A DNA stretch of 58,304 nucleotides from Blastocatellia bacterium (GTDB taxonomy: Bacteria; Acidobacteriota; Blastocatellia; UBA7656; JADIYM01). The first letter of the stretch is position 1, and every line of letters starts with the position of its first letter. The stretch is taken from assembly GCA_021463145.1 (NCBI GenBank), contig JAJTWZ010000023.1:1-58304 (forward strand). Direction: 5' to 3'. Positions 11,134-42,702 of this stretch are shown here, piece after piece. The position numbers and the translations under genes are program-made. The notes beneath the pieces were generated by a model that did no database searches, was not told where the DNA came from, and saw only the letters and a program-made list of their open reading frames with translations.

Positions 11134-11268
11134 GACAGGATTACAGGATTTTCAGGATTGACAGGATTTTCATCGGGCAGCCGGCGAGGGTGTGGTCTCA
11201 CCATAGTAGGCTCGTCGACTCAGCCCTGTGAGAATCCTGTCAATCCTGAAAATCCTGTAATCCTGTCC
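11134..11268. repeat. family B inverted repeat built of CAGGATT units
   Basis: Two perfectly complementary arms of about 35 bp (11134-11168 and 11233-11267) each contain four CAGGATT units at 9-11 bp spacing, separated by about 64 bp of unique sequence. The same arms recur at 40940-41031 and a half copy lies near 37315-37356. It sits between two genes on the same strand and could form a strong hairpin in RNA. Confidence 0.85.
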
Positions 11269-36369: not shown

Positions 36370-37227
36370 TCAACCTGCAAGGCGAACCGGCACGGTGATA
36401 CCGCGTCGCGTCCCGCTGGGATCAGTCGCAACCACCAGCGATTCGAGCTCACCAGACAAAAGTTTCTGCCCCGCGAGGACTTTCGCATCGAAGCGAATCG
36501 TCGTCACGCGGGCGCGATGCTCCACGCGCACGTTCGTAACGCTCAGAGCGGCTTCTGGAACCGGAAAGAACTGTACGGAGCGAACCGGCTCGGTCCACTC
36601 GAGCCGGACGGTCAACTCGCCGGCTCGCATGTCTCCTTCGGACTTCACCGTCGCATATCCCTTCTCGAAAGGCAGTTTCTGCCGCCACTCTGCGAAGAGC
36701 GCTTCGTTCGAAACGACGGCTTTGTCAGCCACGGGCAACGACAGTTCCAGAGTCTCGCCGCCCGGAATGCAGACGTCGCGGCACGCCAGCCACGCAGCCT
36801 TCACCGCGATCCTGATCGTGGCGCCATTGGAAAGGTCTGCCGGCGGCCGCACCTCGATCGGAAACACCACGAGGCCGGTGTATCCGTATCCGGCGATGTC
36901 GCCGGGTTGGTTGAATTCGACAGGAAGGGGCCATTGCATCGCGCCGAACGTGAATCCGGCGGGCCCCGATGGCTCGAGCGTGACCGGCAATCCAGAGTCG
37001 CCCGGGTTCTTCCAGTAGACGTGCCACTCGAGCTGCATCTTCAGCCGGACTCCGACGAGAAATGGTTTGCCCGGTTCGATCGCGGAAACGTCCGCAAGCA
37101 GATCCGCTTTCACGGGATGGTCGGCTGTCGCCCGATGCTGGGACTCGACACCCTCCCCTGGCCGGTCCGTCGCCGCGACCCCGCAGGCCGCCAGCACGAA
37201 GAACAGAAGGATGCAGACGCTTCGCAT
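36370..37227 (-). CDS. DsbD/ScsB-like N-terminal domain lipoprotein
   Basis: 285 residues. Signal MRSVCILLFFVLAACG has a lipobox LAAC (Cys15), so this is a membrane-anchored lipoprotein. The rest matches the N-terminal beta-sandwich of DsbD/ScsB (HVYWKNPGDSGLPV, WPLPVEFNQPGDIAGYGY) with a redox pair in AWLACRDVCIPGGE. The transmembrane and C-terminal thioredoxin domains of full DsbD are missing, so electron delivery must come from another protein. It is probably the first gene of an operon with the redoxin. Catalytic partner and substrate are inferred only. Confidence 0.85.
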   Translation of the reverse strand: MRSVCILLFFVLAACGVAATDRPGEGVESQHRATADHPVKADLLADVSAIEPGKPFLVGVRLKMQLEWHVYWKNPGDSGLPVTLEPSGPAGFTFGAMQWPLPVEFNQPGDIAGYGYTGLVVFPIEVRPPADLSNGATIRIAVKAAWLACRDVCIPGGETLELSLPVADKAVVSNEALFAEWRQKLPFEKGYATVKSEGDMRAGELTVRLEWTEPVRSVQFFPVPEAALSVTNVRVEHRARVTTIRFDAKVLAGQKLLSGELESLVVATDPSGTRRGITVPVRLAG

Positions 37228-37314
37228 GAGCGACTGATACGGAAGGCAGAGGCAAAGGTTACTAATGAGGGGAGTCGTGGGGCCTGAATGGGGGGTGGAC
37301 GGATGGAGATGCTG

Positions 37315-37356
37315 TCAATCCCATCCGAAATCCTGTAAATCCTGTCAAATCCTACG
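37315..37356. repeat. half copy of family B repeat
   Basis: TGTCAATCCC, AAATCCTGTAAATCCTGTC and AAATCCTAC units, the same CAGGATT motif as at 11134 and 40940 but without the facing inverted arm. It lies in front of the NMN adenylyltransferase gene. Confidence 0.55.
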
Positions 37357-37377
37357 TTCCGACAGGAGTCCGTTGAC

Positions 37378-37953
37378 GTGATCGAGCCTCTCCCCGGCCG
37401 AGTGGAGCGCATCGCGATGATCGCGCGGTGGAAACCCGTGCACCTCGGACACGCCGCCGTCCTCGAGGCCCTTGCGGATCGCGCGAACCGGGCCATAGTC
37501 GGTATAGGCAGCTCGAACGCATACGATGTCTCGAATCCGTTCACTGCCATAGAGACGGCCTCGATGATCCGGTGCGTCATTGGCGATCGCCCGAATGTCG
37601 GCCTGATCGAAGTCCCGGATCTCGGACACGGACCTCGATGGCGCTCGATGGTTGTCCGTATGCTCGGCCCTCTCGACCTCTTCGTAACGGCGAACGGCTA
37701 CGTTCGAAGCCTGCTCGCGGACGACTACCGCGTAATCCATCCGGTCTGGCTGCTGGATCCGTCGCGTCACATCGCCGTAGACGGGACGATGGTACGGCGA
37801 CGGATGGCACGCGGCGACGATTGGCGCGAGCTCGTTCCACCCCCTGTCGCCCGATTTCTGGATGAACACGGCCTCGTGGAACGCTTCCGGCGCGAGTTCG
37901 GCGCCGCCACCATCGCACTGGAAGACGAAGAAAAGAAATCGGAACGAAGTTAA
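37378..37953 (+). CDS. archaeal-type NMN adenylyltransferase (NadM-like)
   Basis: 191 residues. The nucleotidyltransferase motif ARWKPVHLGH (HxGH at His22-His25), the GIGSSNAYDVSNPFT loop and the second motif VDGTMVRRRMARGDDWRELVP match archaeal NadM, which makes NAD from NMN and ATP, rather than the bacterial NadD. In NadM the second motif is ISxxxxR; here the Ser is changed to Gly-Thr, so activity is likely but should be considered predicted. The start is GTG at 37378 after AGGAG. It stands alone, behind a half copy of the family B repeat. A role in NAD salvage is the simplest reading. Confidence 0.8.
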   Translation: MIEPLPGRVERIAMIARWKPVHLGHAAVLEALADRANRAIVGIGSSNAYDVSNPFTAIETASMIRCVIGDRPNVGLIEVPDLGHGPRWRSMVVRMLGPLDLFVTANGYVRSLLADDYRVIHPVWLLDPSRHIAVDGTMVRRRMARGDDWRELVPPPVARFLDEHGLVERFRREFGAATIALEDEEKKSERS

Positions 37954-38115
37954 TCGTGTTTGTCGTACACTAAGCCAGCAACGTCCGGCGGCGGCAAAAG
38001 GCGCAGGCCGGGCGGCGGGACGGTTTCTGGCGCACTTCGCGGCCTGTAGAATGGGGCCACGGCGTCCGATCCGTTTCGTTCGACACCACGAAAGTCCGTA
38101 ACAAGGAGAATCCCA

Positions 38116-39093
38116 ATGTACAGCTGGTACGACGACACCAGTGACTGGGCGAAGCCCGGAGCCTATGTCTACGATCCCGCCTCGCGCGGCGCACGCGACG
38201 CCGAAGCAGAGCGCGCCAGGGCATCCGGCCCCCGAACCTACACTGCGACTTCGGGCCCGGACTCCCAGCGGGTCGACCCCAAGAAGCGCGTTCATTCCGC
38301 CTCGAAGAACCCCATAGTCATCGCCGTCGACGTTACGGGATCCATGCAACGCTGGCCGTTCGAGATCTTCGACCGGCTACCGTTGCTCTTCAACACACTT
38401 TCCAGCTATCGGCCGGATCTGGAGATCTGCTTCTGCGCGATCGGAGACGCCTGTTGCGATTCCTGGCCGCTTCAGACGACCGAGTTCGCCCGTGGATTCG
38501 ACCTCGAGACCCATCTCAAGGCGATCTACGGCGAGGGCGGAGGAGGCGACGAGCCCGAGAGCTACGGACTCTTCGCGCACTGGATGGACACGCACGTCAG
38601 CGTGCCTAACGCCACGAAACCATTCCTGATCGTCTTCGGCGACGCGACGATGCACCCGACGGCGCCGGCCAGCCAGATCAAGCACTTCCTTGGCGACGCC
38701 TGGCAGGGCGAGGTGGATTCGATCGACGCCTGGCAGCGAGTTGCCGCGAAGTGGAACACGTGGTTCCTGAGGCGGCCGGGAGGAAGAGCGGATGACGCCG
38801 TCGGCAGGCAATGGGCCAGTGCAGTCGGCAAGCAGCAGGTCGTTCAGATCGACGACGAACAGCGCGCCGTGGACTACGCGATGGGGCTGGTCGCGCGGTC
38901 GTGGGGACATTTTGGCGACTTCAAGGAGAACATGCTCGCCCGGCAGGACGCTGACAAGGTGACGGAACTCGAAGGACGGCTCGCCGAAGTGTCGCCGCGG
39001 TTGCTCGTCTGTCCAAGTTGCGGTGCGACCATTCCGCCGGAAGCGCGCGGGCGCTTTTCCTGCGGCTACTGCAAGTCGACTCTGGAGCTTTAG
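38116..39093 (+). CDS. vWA-domain protein with C-terminal zinc ribbon
   Basis: 325 residues, no signal peptide. A short N-terminal segment with YDDTSDWAKPGAYVYDP leads to a von Willebrand A domain (about 65-270) with a MIDAS motif DVTGS (Asp72, Thr74, Ser76) and GGGGDEPE (141-148), the combination seen in VwkA/alpha-kinase-type vWA domains. The C-terminus has four cysteines (Cys299, Cys302, Cys316, Cys319) as CPSCG and CGYC, a zinc ribbon. The AAGGAG ribosome site before ATG 38116 is strong. It is the first gene of a tight operon: the stop is 2 bp from the next start. A scaffold or metal-dependent binder is plausible; the role is unknown. Confidence 0.88.
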   Translation: MYSWYDDTSDWAKPGAYVYDPASRGARDAEAERARASGPRTYTATSGPDSQRVDPKKRVHSASKNPIVIAVDVTGSMQRWPFEIFDRLPLLFNTLSSYRPDLEICFCAIGDACCDSWPLQTTEFARGFDLETHLKAIYGEGGGGDEPESYGLFAHWMDTHVSVPNATKPFLIVFGDATMHPTAPASQIKHFLGDAWQGEVDSIDAWQRVAAKWNTWFLRRPGGRADDAVGRQWASAVGKQQVVQIDDEQRAVDYAMGLVARSWGHFGDFKENMLARQDADKVTELEGRLAEVSPRLLVCPSCGATIPPEARGRFSCGYCKSTLEL

Positions 39094-39095
39094 CG

Positions 39096-39998
39096 ATGCA
39101 CGGCGTGCGCGCCATCGTCACCGTTCCGCCATACGCGACTTTCATCGACGACGTCGCGCGGCATCCGGTCGTTGGCGGACTGCGGCTCAACACTGTGATG
39201 CCGGTCAAAGGGCCGCTCGACGCTGTGCTCGAGCGGCTCGCAGCGCACGGTCAGCCGCTCTGGGTCGACCTGAAAGGACGGCAGCTGCGCGTCGTGGATG
39301 CCGCCGTTCCTCCGTTCACGTCCGTGCGGCTGAGTCATCGCATCGATGTGACGACTCCGGCGGATGCCTTTTTCTCGGATGGACGCGAGTACGCGCGCAT
39401 CGTCGAGATCGACGGCGACCGGCTGATCCTCGACGAGAGTCCCCGCCGCGTGGTGGGACCGGGCGAGTCCGTGAACATAGTCGCGGACGACCTGCGGATC
39501 GAGGGCACTCTCACCGATACCGATCGCTCGTATCTGGACGCAATGAGTCGCGCCGGCCTTCGCGACGTGATGCTCTCGTTCGTCGAGTCGCCAGGCGACG
39601 TCGCGGAGGTGCGCGAGATCCTTCCCGACGCCAACGTCGTGCTGAAAATCGAAAGCCGGCCCGGTCTCGGATACGTCGCCCGGCACGGCGCCACCCACGG
39701 ACGGCTCATGGCTGCGCGCGGCGACCTGTACGTCGAGGTCGTACAGCCGCACCGGATAATCGCCGCGATGCGCGAGATAGTCCGGGCCGATCCGGACGCA
39801 ATCGTCGCAAGCCGAATCCTCTCTTCCCTGGCTGTCGACCCGGTGCCGCTTGCGTCTGACATCGGCGACGTTGCGTTCTGTCTCGAGATCGGATATCGGA
39901 CGTTCCTGTTCGGCGACGAAGTATGCCAGCGGCGCGACACCATTCTTCCCGCGCTGAATCTGTTCTCGGAGATAGCGCAAGCGAGTTCACTGCCATGA
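39096..39998 (+). CDS. pyruvate-kinase-like protein without C-domain
   Basis: 300 residues, clearly related to pyruvate kinase but shorter (PykF 470). The alpha/beta-barrel is complete: GVRAIVTVPPYATFID and GLRLNTV (Arg30, Asn32), LWVDLKGRQLR, the shortened B-domain, LTDTDRSYLDAMSRAGLRDV, the metal-site LKIES (Lys184, Glu186) and MAARGD (Asp210), then DVAFCLEIGYRTFLFGDEV. The Lys-Asp spacing of 26 equals that in PykF (220 to 246). Changes: RLNFSHG is RLNTVMP, DTKGPEIR is DLKGRQLR and the ITATQ Thr-region is VASRI. The allosteric C-domain is absent. It lies 2 bp after the vWA gene and overlaps the amidohydrolase start by 4 bp. It may act on another substrate. Confidence 0.85.
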   Translation: MHGVRAIVTVPPYATFIDDVARHPVVGGLRLNTVMPVKGPLDAVLERLAAHGQPLWVDLKGRQLRVVDAAVPPFTSVRLSHRIDVTTPADAFFSDGREYARIVEIDGDRLILDESPRRVVGPGESVNIVADDLRIEGTLTDTDRSYLDAMSRAGLRDVMLSFVESPGDVAEVREILPDANVVLKIESRPGLGYVARHGATHGRLMAARGDLYVEVVQPHRIIAAMREIVRADPDAIVASRILSSLAVDPVPLASDIGDVAFCLEIGYRTFLFGDEVCQRRDTILPALNLFSEIAQASSLP

Positions 39999-40942
39999 AA
40001 CAGACCACCTACGGCGAAATCGAGGTGTGCGACGCTCACGTTCATTTCTTTTCGCACCATTTCTTCGAGAAGCTGGCGGGCCTGGCGCCGTCCACTCGCG
40101 GCACACCCGATCCCGTCGAGGCCGCGTGCCAGGTAACGGGCTTCGACCCGCCCGGAACCGACCCGGCGTTCCTCGCCGACCGCTGGCTGGCCGAACTCGA
40201 TCTCGCCGGGGTTTCGCGGGCGATGCTCATCGCCAGCGTTCCGGGCGACGAGGCGTCGGTCGCCGCTGCTGTCTGGCGGCATCCGGACCGTTTCGTCGGC
40301 GCGTTCATGGTCGACCCGACGCACGACGACACCGAAGCTCGGGTGCGCAGAGCATTCGACGAACTGGGGCTTGGCGTCGCCTGCCTCTTTCCGTCGATGC
40401 ATCACTTCAGCATCGCGGAGTCGGACGGCGTCCGCGCCGTTGCGGCGCTAGCCGCGGAGCGGCCCGGTCGCGCCGTCTTCACTCATTTCGGGGCCCTGTC
40501 GGTTGGAATCCGCAGCAAGCTCGGATTGCCGAGCCCGTTCGACATGCGGCGTTCGAACCCGTTCGATCTCCATCCAGTTGCCGGCGAGTTCGCGTCGACG
40601 ACCTTCATCGTTCCGCACTTCGGCGCGGGCATGTTTCGCGAAACTCTCATGGTCGCGGAGTTGTGCCCGAACGTCATGATCGACACTTCGTCGAGCAACA
40701 GGTGGATGCGCTACGTTTCGCCACCGGCCGATCTGGCCAGTGTCTTCCGTCAGACCATAGCGGTGGCCGGCGCGTCGCGACTGTTGTTCGGGAGCGATTC
40801 GTCGTTTTTCCCGCGCGGGTGGAACGGCACGGTCTTCGACGCACAGATCGAAGCGCTCGCCGACGCCGGCGCATCGGCGGACGACGCCCGCGCCGTCCTC
40901 GGCGGCAACTTCGGGCGTCTGTTTGGAGAACAGGAGAGCTGA
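39995..40942 (+). CDS. amidohydrolase family 2 protein
   Basis: 315 residues. Amidohydro_2 (ACMSD/TIM-barrel) hydrolase or decarboxylase: the metal motif DAHVH (His15, His17), further His164 in FTHFGAL and His208 in IVPHFGAG, and Asp268 in LLFGSDSSFF, all as in the family. It lacks the Lys carboxylation region of some relatives; one divalent metal is expected. Substrates of this family are small carboxylated or aromatic compounds; I cannot tell which. The ATG overlaps the stop of the pyruvate-kinase-like gene by four bases (ATGA), so it belongs to the same operon. The stop lies within the left arm of the family B repeat. Confidence 0.88.
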   Translation: MKQTTYGEIEVCDAHVHFFSHHFFEKLAGLAPSTRGTPDPVEAACQVTGFDPPGTDPAFLADRWLAELDLAGVSRAMLIASVPGDEASVAAAVWRHPDRFVGAFMVDPTHDDTEARVRRAFDELGLGVACLFPSMHHFSIAESDGVRAVAALAAERPGRAVFTHFGALSVGIRSKLGLPSPFDMRRSNPFDLHPVAGEFASTTFIVPHFGAGMFRETLMVAELCPNVMIDTSSSNRWMRYVSPPADLASVFRQTIAVAGASRLLFGSDSSFFPRGWNGTVFDAQIEALADAGASADDARAVLGGNFGRLFGEQES

Positions 40943-41031
40943 CAGGATTACAGGATTTTCAGGATTGACAGGATTCTTCTCGGCATTGATTCGAGATAAT
41001 CCTGTGAATCCTGAAAATCCTGTAATCCTGT
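40940..41031. repeat. family B inverted repeat (second copy)
   Basis: Arms 40940-40974 and 40997-41031 are complementary with one mismatch and almost identical to those at 11134-11268, with a 22 bp spacer here. It fills the space between the convergent amidohydrolase and hutU genes, and the amidohydrolase stop codon lies in its first bases. It could act as a bidirectional terminator. Confidence 0.85.
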
Positions 41032-41043
41032 CTACTCTCCTGT

Positions 41044-42702
41044 CTACTCTTCCAGCATGGGTATGTTCATACCCTTCTCGCGGGCCGTGTCCTTCGCTTC
41101 GTCGTAGCCGGCATCCACGTGCCGGGCGACACCCAGGCCTGGGTCGTTCGTCAGCACGCGATTGAGCCGCGTCGCGGCCTCCGGCGTGCCGTCCGCGACC
41201 GAAACCTGGCCGGCGTGCAGGCTGTAGCCCATTCCAACCCCGCCGCCGTGATGGAAGCTTACCCAGGAAGCGCCGGACGCCGTGTTCAGAAGCGCGTTCA
41301 AGATCGGCCAATCGGCGACCGCGTCGGTACCGTCTCGCATTGCCTCCGTTTCGCGATACGGCGAAGCCACCGATCCCGTGTCGAGATGGTCGCGGCCTAT
41401 CACGATCGGCGCTTCGATCTTCCCTCGTTTGACGAGGTCGTTTATCGCTTCGCCCATAATCGCGCGGTCGCCGTAGCCCAGCCAGCAGATGCGCGCCGGC
41501 AGTCCCTGGAACTGCACCCTCTCGCGCGCGACGCGAAGCCATCGCTCGAGCGTGCGGTCGTGTGGGAACAGCTCGAGCGCAAGATCGTCCGTCGCCGCGA
41601 TGTCCGCCCTGTTGCCCGAAAGCGCAGCCCACCGGAACGGCCCACGACCCTCGCAGAACAGCGGACGAATGTACTCCGGAACGAACCCGGGCACGTCGAA
41701 GGCATTCTCCACGCCGGCTTTCTTCGCGTGCCCGCGGATGTTGTTGCCGTAGTCGAACGTGACGCTTCCCATCTTCTGCAGGTCGAGCACTGCCTGCATG
41801 TGCACGGCCATCGTCTCGAACGCGCGCCTCTGGTAGCCGTCTGGATCGTCCTGCCGCAACCGGATCGCATCCGCGAAGTCCAACCCGCTCGGCACGTAAC
41901 CGTAGAGCGTGTCGTGCGCCGACGTCTGATCGGTAAGGACATCGGGAACTTCTCCACGACGGACAAGCTCCGGCAGCACGTCGGCGCAGTTTCCGACGAG
42001 ACCGATCGAAAGCGGCTCGCGTCGCTTCTGCGCATCTCTTGCGATTCGCAGCGCCTCATCCAGATCGAAGCTGATCCGGTCGCAGTACCCCGTCTCTATT
42101 CGCTTCTCGATTCTGGATGCGTCCACGTCGATGCCGAGAAAAACCGCCCCGCACATCGCGGCCGCGAGCGGCTGCGCGCCACCCATTCCGCCCATACCGC
42201 CCGAGACGACGAGCCTGCCGGTCAGATCGCCGCCGAAGTGACGGTCGGCCGCGGCCGCAAATGTCTCGAACGTGCCCTGCACGATGCCCTGCGAACCGAT
42301 GTAGATCCAGCTGCCGGCCGTCATCTGACCGTACATCATCAGTCCGGCGCGCTCGAGCCGGTCGAACTCGTCCCAGTTCGCCCAGTTGCCGACGAGGTTC
42401 GAATTCGCGATCAGCACCCGCGGCGCATAGTCGTGCGTGCGGAAGATCGCCACCGGTTTGCCGGACTGAACGAGCAGCGTCTCGTCGTTCTCCAGCTCGC
42501 GCAGGCTGCGCACGATGGCGTCGAAACACTTCCAGTTGCGCGCGGCGCGGCCGCGGCCGCCATAGACAACCAGGTCCTCGGGCCGTTCGGCGACCTCCGG
42601 ATCCAGGTTGTTCATGAGCATCCGCAGCGCGGCTTCCTGATGCCAACCCTTGCAGCTCAACTCCGTGCCGCGTGGCGCGCGCAGTACCCTCGATTCCGTC
42701 AT
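41044..42702 (-). CDS. hutU: urocanate hydratase
   Basis: Second enzyme of histidine degradation: converts urocanate to imidazolone propionate using tightly bound NAD. The 552-residue product has the family features: [20 protein letters not shown] near the start, [34 protein letters not shown], the NAD site [14 protein letters not shown] and catalytic region [24 protein letters not shown] and [12 protein letters not shown]. Length is normal. The start ATG at 42702 has AGGA upstream; the frame further up lies in the preceding gene's terminal region. It follows hutH by 16 bp in the same operon. Confidence 0.97.

What the first reader, a model, noticed from the sequence alone, without database searches (positions are those of the whole stretch)
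38116..40942. Tight vWA / PK-like / amidohydrolase operon
Three genes with spacings of 2 bp and a 4 bp overlap encode a vWA-zinc-ribbon protein, a pyruvate-kinase-like protein and an amidohydrolase. Such close packing indicates joint function, perhaps an uncharacterised metabolic or signalling unit in which the vWA protein binds or assembles the enzymes. I know of no described system with this set. It is the best candidate for a new system in this window.
Basis: partly seen in the sequence, partly recalled or inferred. Interest (0 to 1): 0.75.

Follow-up and report, generated by a model that had tools for sequence, protein, structure and literature searches.

The report
vWA / pyruvate-kinase-like NAD gene cassette
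Two of the three tightly packed genes belong to a conserved cassette, found in several bacterial phyla and related to a module common in phages, that travels with genes for making NAD and purine nucleotides; it looks like an undescribed nucleotide pathway or repair unit, while the third gene (the amidohydrolase) is only a local passenger.

Summary
The three genes are real and placed as described, but the trio is not the natural unit. In 11 of 11 close relatives (Myxococcota, Chloroflexota, others, window included) the vWA gene is immediately followed by the PK-like gene (PKL). In 10 of 10 testable loci an NMN-adenylyltransferase-like gene lies upstream; the window has it at 37378-37953. In 6 of 11 an NAD synthetase (NadE) follows. 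The amidohydrolase is in no other cassette and occurs elsewhere in unrelated contexts. A divergent branch has a NadE-NMNAT fusion, Ser/Thr kinase, vWA, PKL and usually a PurA-like enzyme. The same vWA family (PHROG 2971, function unknown) is common in phages: 79 of 82 viral loci have a PurA-like gene downstream, about half a kinase upstream. PKL-linked vWAs plus one PurA-linked row form one clade (100/99). PKL models as pyruvate kinase A and B domains without the C domain; it keeps the metal/enolate residues and has lost three nucleotide-phosphate contacts. Most cassette genomes hold separate NadD and NadE, so the cassette copies are extra. Best reading: a vWA-organised NAD/adenine-nucleotide synthesis or restoration module. 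Product unknown; no description found in the held literature.

The parts
37378..37953 (+). GTG start; AGGAG upstream at 37363-37367
   Evidence: NCBIfam PRK01153 E=2.6e-26 and TIGR01527 E=2.4e-23, both below the curated cut-offs; PF01467 weak; same position in all 10 testable loci; R17, P20, H22 invariant in 5 aligned members
38116..39093 (+). vWA-fold protein (325 aa), hub of the cassette; PHROG 2971 relative
   Evidence: AlphaFold pLDDT 83, VIA Z about 14 to integrin/I-domain structures; phrog_2971 E=3.5e-18; family seen in 105 loci
38329..38343 (+). MIDAS motif DVTGS (residues 72-76)
   Evidence: D72, V73, T74, S76 invariant in 19 aligned relatives from chromosomes, plasmids and phages
39007..39090 (+). 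C-terminal zinc ribbon of the vWA protein (CPSC...CGYC); specific to this branch, lost in L006
   Evidence: Pfam zinc-ribbon matches at residues 298-324, sub-threshold; alignments
39096..39998 (+). Pyruvate-kinase-like protein (PKL, 300 aa): A and B domains of pyruvate kinase, no C domain
   Evidence: PF00224 E=8.8e-12; AlphaFold pLDDT 93.8; VIA Z 28.4 over 283 residues to human PKLR residues 85-431; always next to vWA
39645..39653 (+). PKL residues K184-E186 (equivalent to K270 and E272 of PKM): metal/enolate chemistry kept
   Evidence: Invariant in 14 of 14 PKLs
39723..39725 (+). PKL residue D210 (equivalent to D296 of PKM), metal ligand
   Evidence: Invariant in 14 of 14
39995..40942 (+). 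Amidohydrolase of the Amidohydro_2 family; translationally coupled here but judged a lineage-specific passenger, not part of the conserved unit
   Evidence: PF04909 E=1.6e-28; absent from the other cassettes; 9 of 97 relatives have it at 49-62% identity, in unrelated contexts where seen

Best explanation
The window carries a chromosomal cassette, NMNAT-like - vWA - PKL, of a family of nucleotide-enzyme modules built around one vWA protein family. SHOWN by comparison: the vWA-PKL pair is constant, it travels with NMNAT-like and often NadE, and a sister form in phages and plasmids pairs the same vWA family with a PurA-like ligase and often a kinase. INFERRED: the module makes or restores a pyridine/adenine nucleotide. 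The NMNAT-like enzyme (with NadE where present) joins or amidates the dinucleotide. PKL performs Mg-dependent chemistry on PEP or another 2-oxo acid or acid phosphate, with an altered phosphate acceptor because three nucleotide-phosphate contacts of pyruvate kinase are lost. The vWA protein uses its metal site to bind a partner peptide and so holds or gates the enzymes. In the PurA-linked form a kinase would regulate that hub. Because separate canonical NadD and NadE exist in most of these genomes, the cassette is not the bulk NAD pathway but a dedicated one: either a modified NAD-like product or NAD/ATP restoration under stress or attack. The amidohydrolase is not part of it.
For: Order NMNAT-vWA-PKL in window, L003, L004, L005, L006, L040-L043, L045 (10 of 10 testable; L044 starts at a contig edge); NadE next in L003, L004, L040-L042, L045. 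Independent branch L046-L048: CN_hydrolase-NAD_synthase-CTP_transf fusion, Ser/Thr kinase, vWA, PKL, with PurA-like in L046 and L048. Phages: 79 of 82 loci have PurA-like downstream of vWA on the same strand; at 70% identity 53 of 56 clusters have PurA-like and 33 have the kinase; unbiased clustering finds no other widely recurring partner. Phage L127 has kinase-vWA-PKL-PurA, L126 kinase-vWA-PKL. NAD genes lie near the module in some phages: isochorismatase-family (nicotinamidase-like), NadE and NAPRTase around vWA-PurA in L184; NadM-Nudix and macro domain in L150. Nudix protein with weak NrtR-type winged helix in the Rhodococcus plasmid module, homologue in Tsukamurella. PKL fold and residues. 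One PKL clade on the vWA tree. Extra-copy status.
Against: No enzymatic or binding data. The NMNAT-like proteins fall below curated NMNAT cut-offs, and in L003 and L004 the second His of HxGH is Gln. PurA-like proteins fall below the PurA and PurZ cut-offs, so substrates are open. NadE is missing from 5 of 11 cassettes, the window among them. Most phage modules show no NAD gene nearby, and large phages often carry NAD genes anyway, so that link is weak there. A separate NadE was not clear in G232 and G239.
Confidence: 0.48

Rival explanations
1. Sub-reading 1 of purpose, NAD/ATP restoration: PurA-like re-aminates IMP, PKL regenerates NTP from PEP, NMNAT/NadE rebuild NAD after depletion by stress, prophage or defence systems; in phages it is a counter-defence set comparable in purpose to NARP.
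For: All partner enzymes point at adenine or pyridine nucleotide synthesis; the phage distribution fits; a Nudix/NrtR-type protein lies in some plasmid copies; NAD reconstitution by phages is established (PMC12774641).
Against: PKL lost equivalents of K207, S77 and H78, which contact nucleotide phosphates in pyruvate kinase, and lacks the C domain, so plain ADP phosphorylation is doubtful. The window and close relatives lie on bacterial chromosomes with no defence-family match in the trio or NMNAT.
Confidence: 0.25
2. Sub-reading 2 of purpose, dedicated biosynthesis of a modified dinucleotide or signal nucleotide: PKL and PurA-like each add an acid (pyruvyl or aspartyl type) to a nucleotide made by NMNAT/NadE.
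For: Divergence of PKL and PurA-like from housekeeping relatives while PKL catalytic residues stay; extra copies beside canonical NadD and NadE; in the divergent branch all enzymes are in a row.
Against: No receptor or effector gene recurs; no product known.
Confidence: 0.25
3. One reading: vWA, PKL and amidohydrolase form one functional unit.
For: Spacings of 2 bp and -4 bp.
Against: Amidohydrolase absent from every other cassette and found without the cassette in other relatives, in varied contexts.
Confidence: 0.06
4. Ordinary NAD-biosynthesis operon with an accessory protein-quality or regulatory gene (vWA) and a non-catalytic PKL that senses PEP or 2-oxo acids.
For: NMNAT and NadE neighbours; a pyruvate kinase fold could serve as a ligand sensor (inference).
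Against: Catalytic metal residues invariant in 14 of 14 PKLs; separate NadD in 14 of 14 genomes; the PurA/kinase forms are not NAD operons.
Confidence: 0.17

Closest known systems
Pyruvate kinase (PF00224, TIGR01064)
   Same: A-domain barrel and a B-like domain; equivalents of R73, N75, D113, R120, K270, E272, R294, D296 kept
   Different: No C domain; B domain shorter; K207, S77 and H78 replaced; T328 is Ser; TIGR01064 score 55 bits against a cut-off of 306
NMN adenylyltransferase (NadM, archaeal type) and NAD synthetase (NadE)
   Same: Cassette partners belong to these superfamilies, in one branch fused into one protein
   Different: NMNAT-like scores below family cut-offs; extra copies beside canonical genes; coupled to vWA and PKL
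Phage NAD+ reconstitution pathways NARP1/NARP2 (NARP1 in PMC12774641; NARP2 details from general knowledge)
   Same: NAD-building enzymes; occurs in phages
   Different: No Adps/Namat pair and no NAMPT seen in the cassettes; vWA, PKL, PurA-like and kinase are not part of NARP
MoxR-vWA ternary conflict systems (PMC7159879)
   Same: vWA protein with MIDAS as a proposed peptide-binding hub in a multi-gene system
   Different: No MoxR-type AAA+ ATPase in the cassette; no detectable sequence link of the vWA families was tested
ARG-centric anti-ADP-ribosylation systems (PMC9503650)
   Same: vWA chaperone together with a Nudix-type regulator
   Different: No ADP-ribosylglycohydrolase or rhodanese-phosphatase in these cassettes
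Ter systems (Anantharaman 2012, cited within PMC7824862; the paper itself was not readable here)
   Same: Theme of vWA protein with nucleotide-metabolite biosynthesis
   Different: No TerD, TelA or TerC domain among the cassette genes scanned

Membership tests
Pyruvate kinase | PF00224 barrel above gathering score | tested here: met
   45.2 bits against 30; fold Z 28.4
Pyruvate kinase | Full enzyme with C domain and equivalog score | tested here: not met
   300 aa, no C domain; TIGR01064 55 against 306 bits; structural match stops at the end of the A domain
Pyruvate kinase | Nucleotide-phosphate contacts K207, S77, H78 | tested here: not met
   E/Q, V/G and M/L/V in 14 of 14
Pyruvate kinase | Activity PEP + ADP | not testable with these tools
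   needs enzymology
vWA domain | vWA fold with DxTxS/DxSxS MIDAS | tested here: met
   Z about 14 to integrin/I domains; DVT[GR]S in 96 of 105
NMN adenylyltransferase (TIGR01527 / PRK01153) | Score above curated cut-off | tested here: not met
   82.5 against 181 and 92.3 against 127 bits
NMN adenylyltransferase (TIGR01527 / PRK01153) | HxGH nucleotidyl-transfer motif | tested here: met
   HLGH in the window protein; HRGQ in L003 and HLGQ in L004
MoxR-vWA ternary system | Adjacent MoxR AAA+ ATPase | tested here: not met
   None among the cassette genes scanned; none recurs in phage loci
NARP1 / NARP2 | Adps + Namat, or NAMPT + NMNAT | tested here: not met
   No phosphoribosyltransferase or Prs-type gene among the cassette genes scanned; only phage L184 was seen with a NAPRTase nearby
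ARG-centric anti-ADP-ribosylation system | ADP-ribosylglycohydrolase gene | tested here: not met
   Not among the cassette genes scanned
Ter system | TerD/TelA/TerC components | tested here: not met
   None among the cassette genes scanned
Known anti-phage defence (PADLOC) | Hit of trio or NMNAT to a PADLOC model | tested here: not met
   0 hits

The most novel reading that the evidence does not exclude
A previously unrecognised nucleotide pathway, organised by one vWA protein family and shared by bacterial chromosomes, plasmids and large phages, in which PKL and/or a PurA-like ligase build an unknown derivative of NAD or an adenine nucleotide.
Probability: 0.3. Interest if true: 0.85.

Novelty: categorically new. 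Interest (0 to 1): 0.64.

Why it matters
The core vWA family is annotated 'unknown function' (PHROG 2971), yet it sits beside a PurA-like enzyme in nearly all phage loci found and beside PKL and NAD enzymes on chromosomes. That gives a concrete hypothesis for two unknown families at once, and for why phages carry divergent PurA genes. If the module makes a new nucleotide or restores NAD/ATP, it bears on phage-host metabolic conflict. The mark 'categorically new' is for the gene system: every part is of a known superfamily, its function is not shown, and subscription literature was not searchable.

Tried and rejected
Trio as a unit: rejected. Known defence system: no PADLOC hit. Housekeeping NAD pathway: unlikely, NadD separate in all 14 genomes, NadE separate in most. 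PurZ (2-aminoadenine) pathway: PurA-like proteins score at most 57 bits against a PurZ cut-off of 300, so the phage annotation '2-aminooxy adenylosuccinate synthetase' is not supported by that model. Plasmid search with PKL found only ordinary pyruvate kinases among the listed hits. Paper searches for vWA with NadE, NMNAT, PurA or pyruvate kinase gave no description. Two candidate sources, on Ter and on NrtR, were not held. My regular expression for the second PurA motif was badly written (2 of 88) and is not used as evidence. No sigma-70-like promoter was found in 37200-41100 and terminator-like sites are at chance level.

Full report
Observation. The three genes are present exactly as described: vWA 38116-39093, PKL 39096-39998, amidohydrolase 39995-40942, with a 2-bp gap and a 4-bp ATGA overlap. 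PKL hits the pyruvate kinase barrel of Pfam (E=8.8e-12), the amidohydrolase hits Amidohydro_2 (E=1.6e-28), and the vWA protein has no above-threshold Pfam match. An upstream gene on the same strand, 37378-37953, matches NMN adenylyltransferases (E=2.6e-26, below cut-off).

What is conserved. A scan of bacterial genomes with PKL gave four loci in Deltaproteobacteria/Myxococcota, Anaerolineales and a marine bacterium. All have NMNAT-like, vWA and PKL in that order. Profile searches added six more (7 of 284 genomes of the L004 phylum and 2 of 301 of the L005 phylum have it, three of these already known). In all 11 loci, window included, vWA is directly upstream of PKL. NMNAT-like is upstream in 10 of 10 testable; in L040-L042 a large Sel1-type lipoprotein lies between. 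NadE follows in six. The amidohydrolase is in none of the other cassettes. It occurs in 9 of 97 other relatives at 49-62% identity, next to unrelated genes where the flanks were read.

A second branch. Three class relatives of the window carry a divergent cassette: a protein with CN_hydrolase, NAD_synthase and CTP_transf domains (NadE fused to an NMNAT-like domain), a Ser/Thr kinase, vWA, PKL at about 35% identity, and, in L046 and L048, a PurA-like enzyme. A fourth, L210, has kinase-vWA-PKL; L211 has kinase-vWA-PurA without PKL in view. The NAD link is thus seen in two differently built cassettes.

The phage and plasmid form. vWA relatives at about 30% identity lie on plasmids with a kinase-like protein, a PurA-like enzyme and, in Rhodococcus and Tsukamurella, a Nudix protein (with a weak NrtR-type winged-helix match in Rhodococcus). 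Phages carry them too: Bixzunavirus (kinase-vWA-PurA) and Vibrio phages (vWA-PurA). A scan of viral contigs found 186 relatives, of which 80 were kept, plus two PKL loci. Of these 82 viral loci 79 have PurA-like downstream on the same strand; at 70% identity this is 53 of 56 clusters, and 33 have the kinase. Clustering all ORFs without prior choice returned only PurA, vWA and the kinase as widely recurring families; the next groups are shadow ORFs of the same genes or a few related phages. Two phages, L126 (same as L057) and L127, have PKL directly after vWA. Some phage modules have NAD genes nearby: L184 (isochorismatase-family, NadE, NAPRTase) and L150 (NadM-Nudix, macro).

Tree. All vWAs with a PKL neighbour, plus L132, form one clade of 19 with support 100/99; the other 86 are almost all PurA-linked. 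PKL was therefore probably joined to the module once; the tree is unrooted and L126/L057 is a long branch.

Protein evidence. The PKL model (pLDDT 93.8) matches pyruvate kinases over its full length (Foldseek E=2e-21; Z 28.4, rmsd 2.6, 283 residues), that is the A and B domains and not the C domain. Equivalents of R73, N75, D113, R120, K270, E272, R294 and D296 (PKM numbering, assigned from the alignment with the genome's own pyruvate kinase, and general knowledge of the enzyme) are invariant in 14 of 14; K207, S77 and H78 are replaced in 14 of 14 and T328 is Ser. The inference is metal-dependent enolate or phosphate chemistry with a changed acceptor site. The vWA model (pLDDT 83) matches integrin and I domains at Z about 14; the MIDAS residues and a GGG..ESY signature are conserved across phages and chromosomes.

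Extra copies. NadD-type enzymes exist apart from the cassette in all 14 cassette genomes, five of them below the curated cut-off of that model, and a separate NadE in most, the window genome included. The cassette is therefore not the bulk NAD pathway.

Mechanism. I favour a vWA-organised module that makes or restores a pyridine/adenine nucleotide. Association and fold are shown; product, vWA contacts and the direction of chemistry are inferred. Two readings of purpose remain open: restoration of NAD/ATP, and synthesis of a modified dinucleotide or signal; they are listed under the rivals with their own odds but both lie inside the favoured frame.

Known systems. MoxR-vWA ternary systems (PMC7159879), ARG-centric systems (PMC9503650), Ter systems and NARP (PMC12774641) share themes but miss defining genes. 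No held paper describes this set.

Noticed in passing
window 40930-41043 (also 11141-11260; half-site 37329-37347): CAGGATT-based inverted repeat, 46-nt arms at 93% complementarity, folding at -86 kcal/mol (z -14.7), at the end of the amidohydrolase gene; a half-site lies just before the NMNAT gene. 37 hits genome-wide against 0 for the reversed pattern, so a dispersed repeat.
   Followed up: partly
L184/L185 (phage contigs): NAD salvage island around vWA-PurA: isochorismatase-family (nicotinamidase-like), NadE, NAPRTase.
   Followed up: partly
L150:1084-8115: Phage with NadM-Nudix upstream of kinase-vWA and a macro-domain protein between vWA and PurA.
   Followed up: partly
L040-L042: About 1000-aa Sel1-repeat lipoprotein-like protein between NMNAT and vWA in three Myxococcota-phylum genomes.
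   Followed up: no
L003:1122-2261 and L004:3253-4329: Protein with cyclic-nucleotide-binding domains directly upstream of NMNAT (two domains by Pfam in L003).
   Followed up: no
L126:7403-8296: Thg1-like tRNA-His guanylyltransferase downstream of the phage PKL; a group of three similar-looking ORFs in phage loci.
   Followed up: no
L003:2264-2812 and L004:4347-4910: Second His of the HxGH motif of the NMNAT-like protein is Gln in both, suggesting altered catalysis.
   Followed up: no
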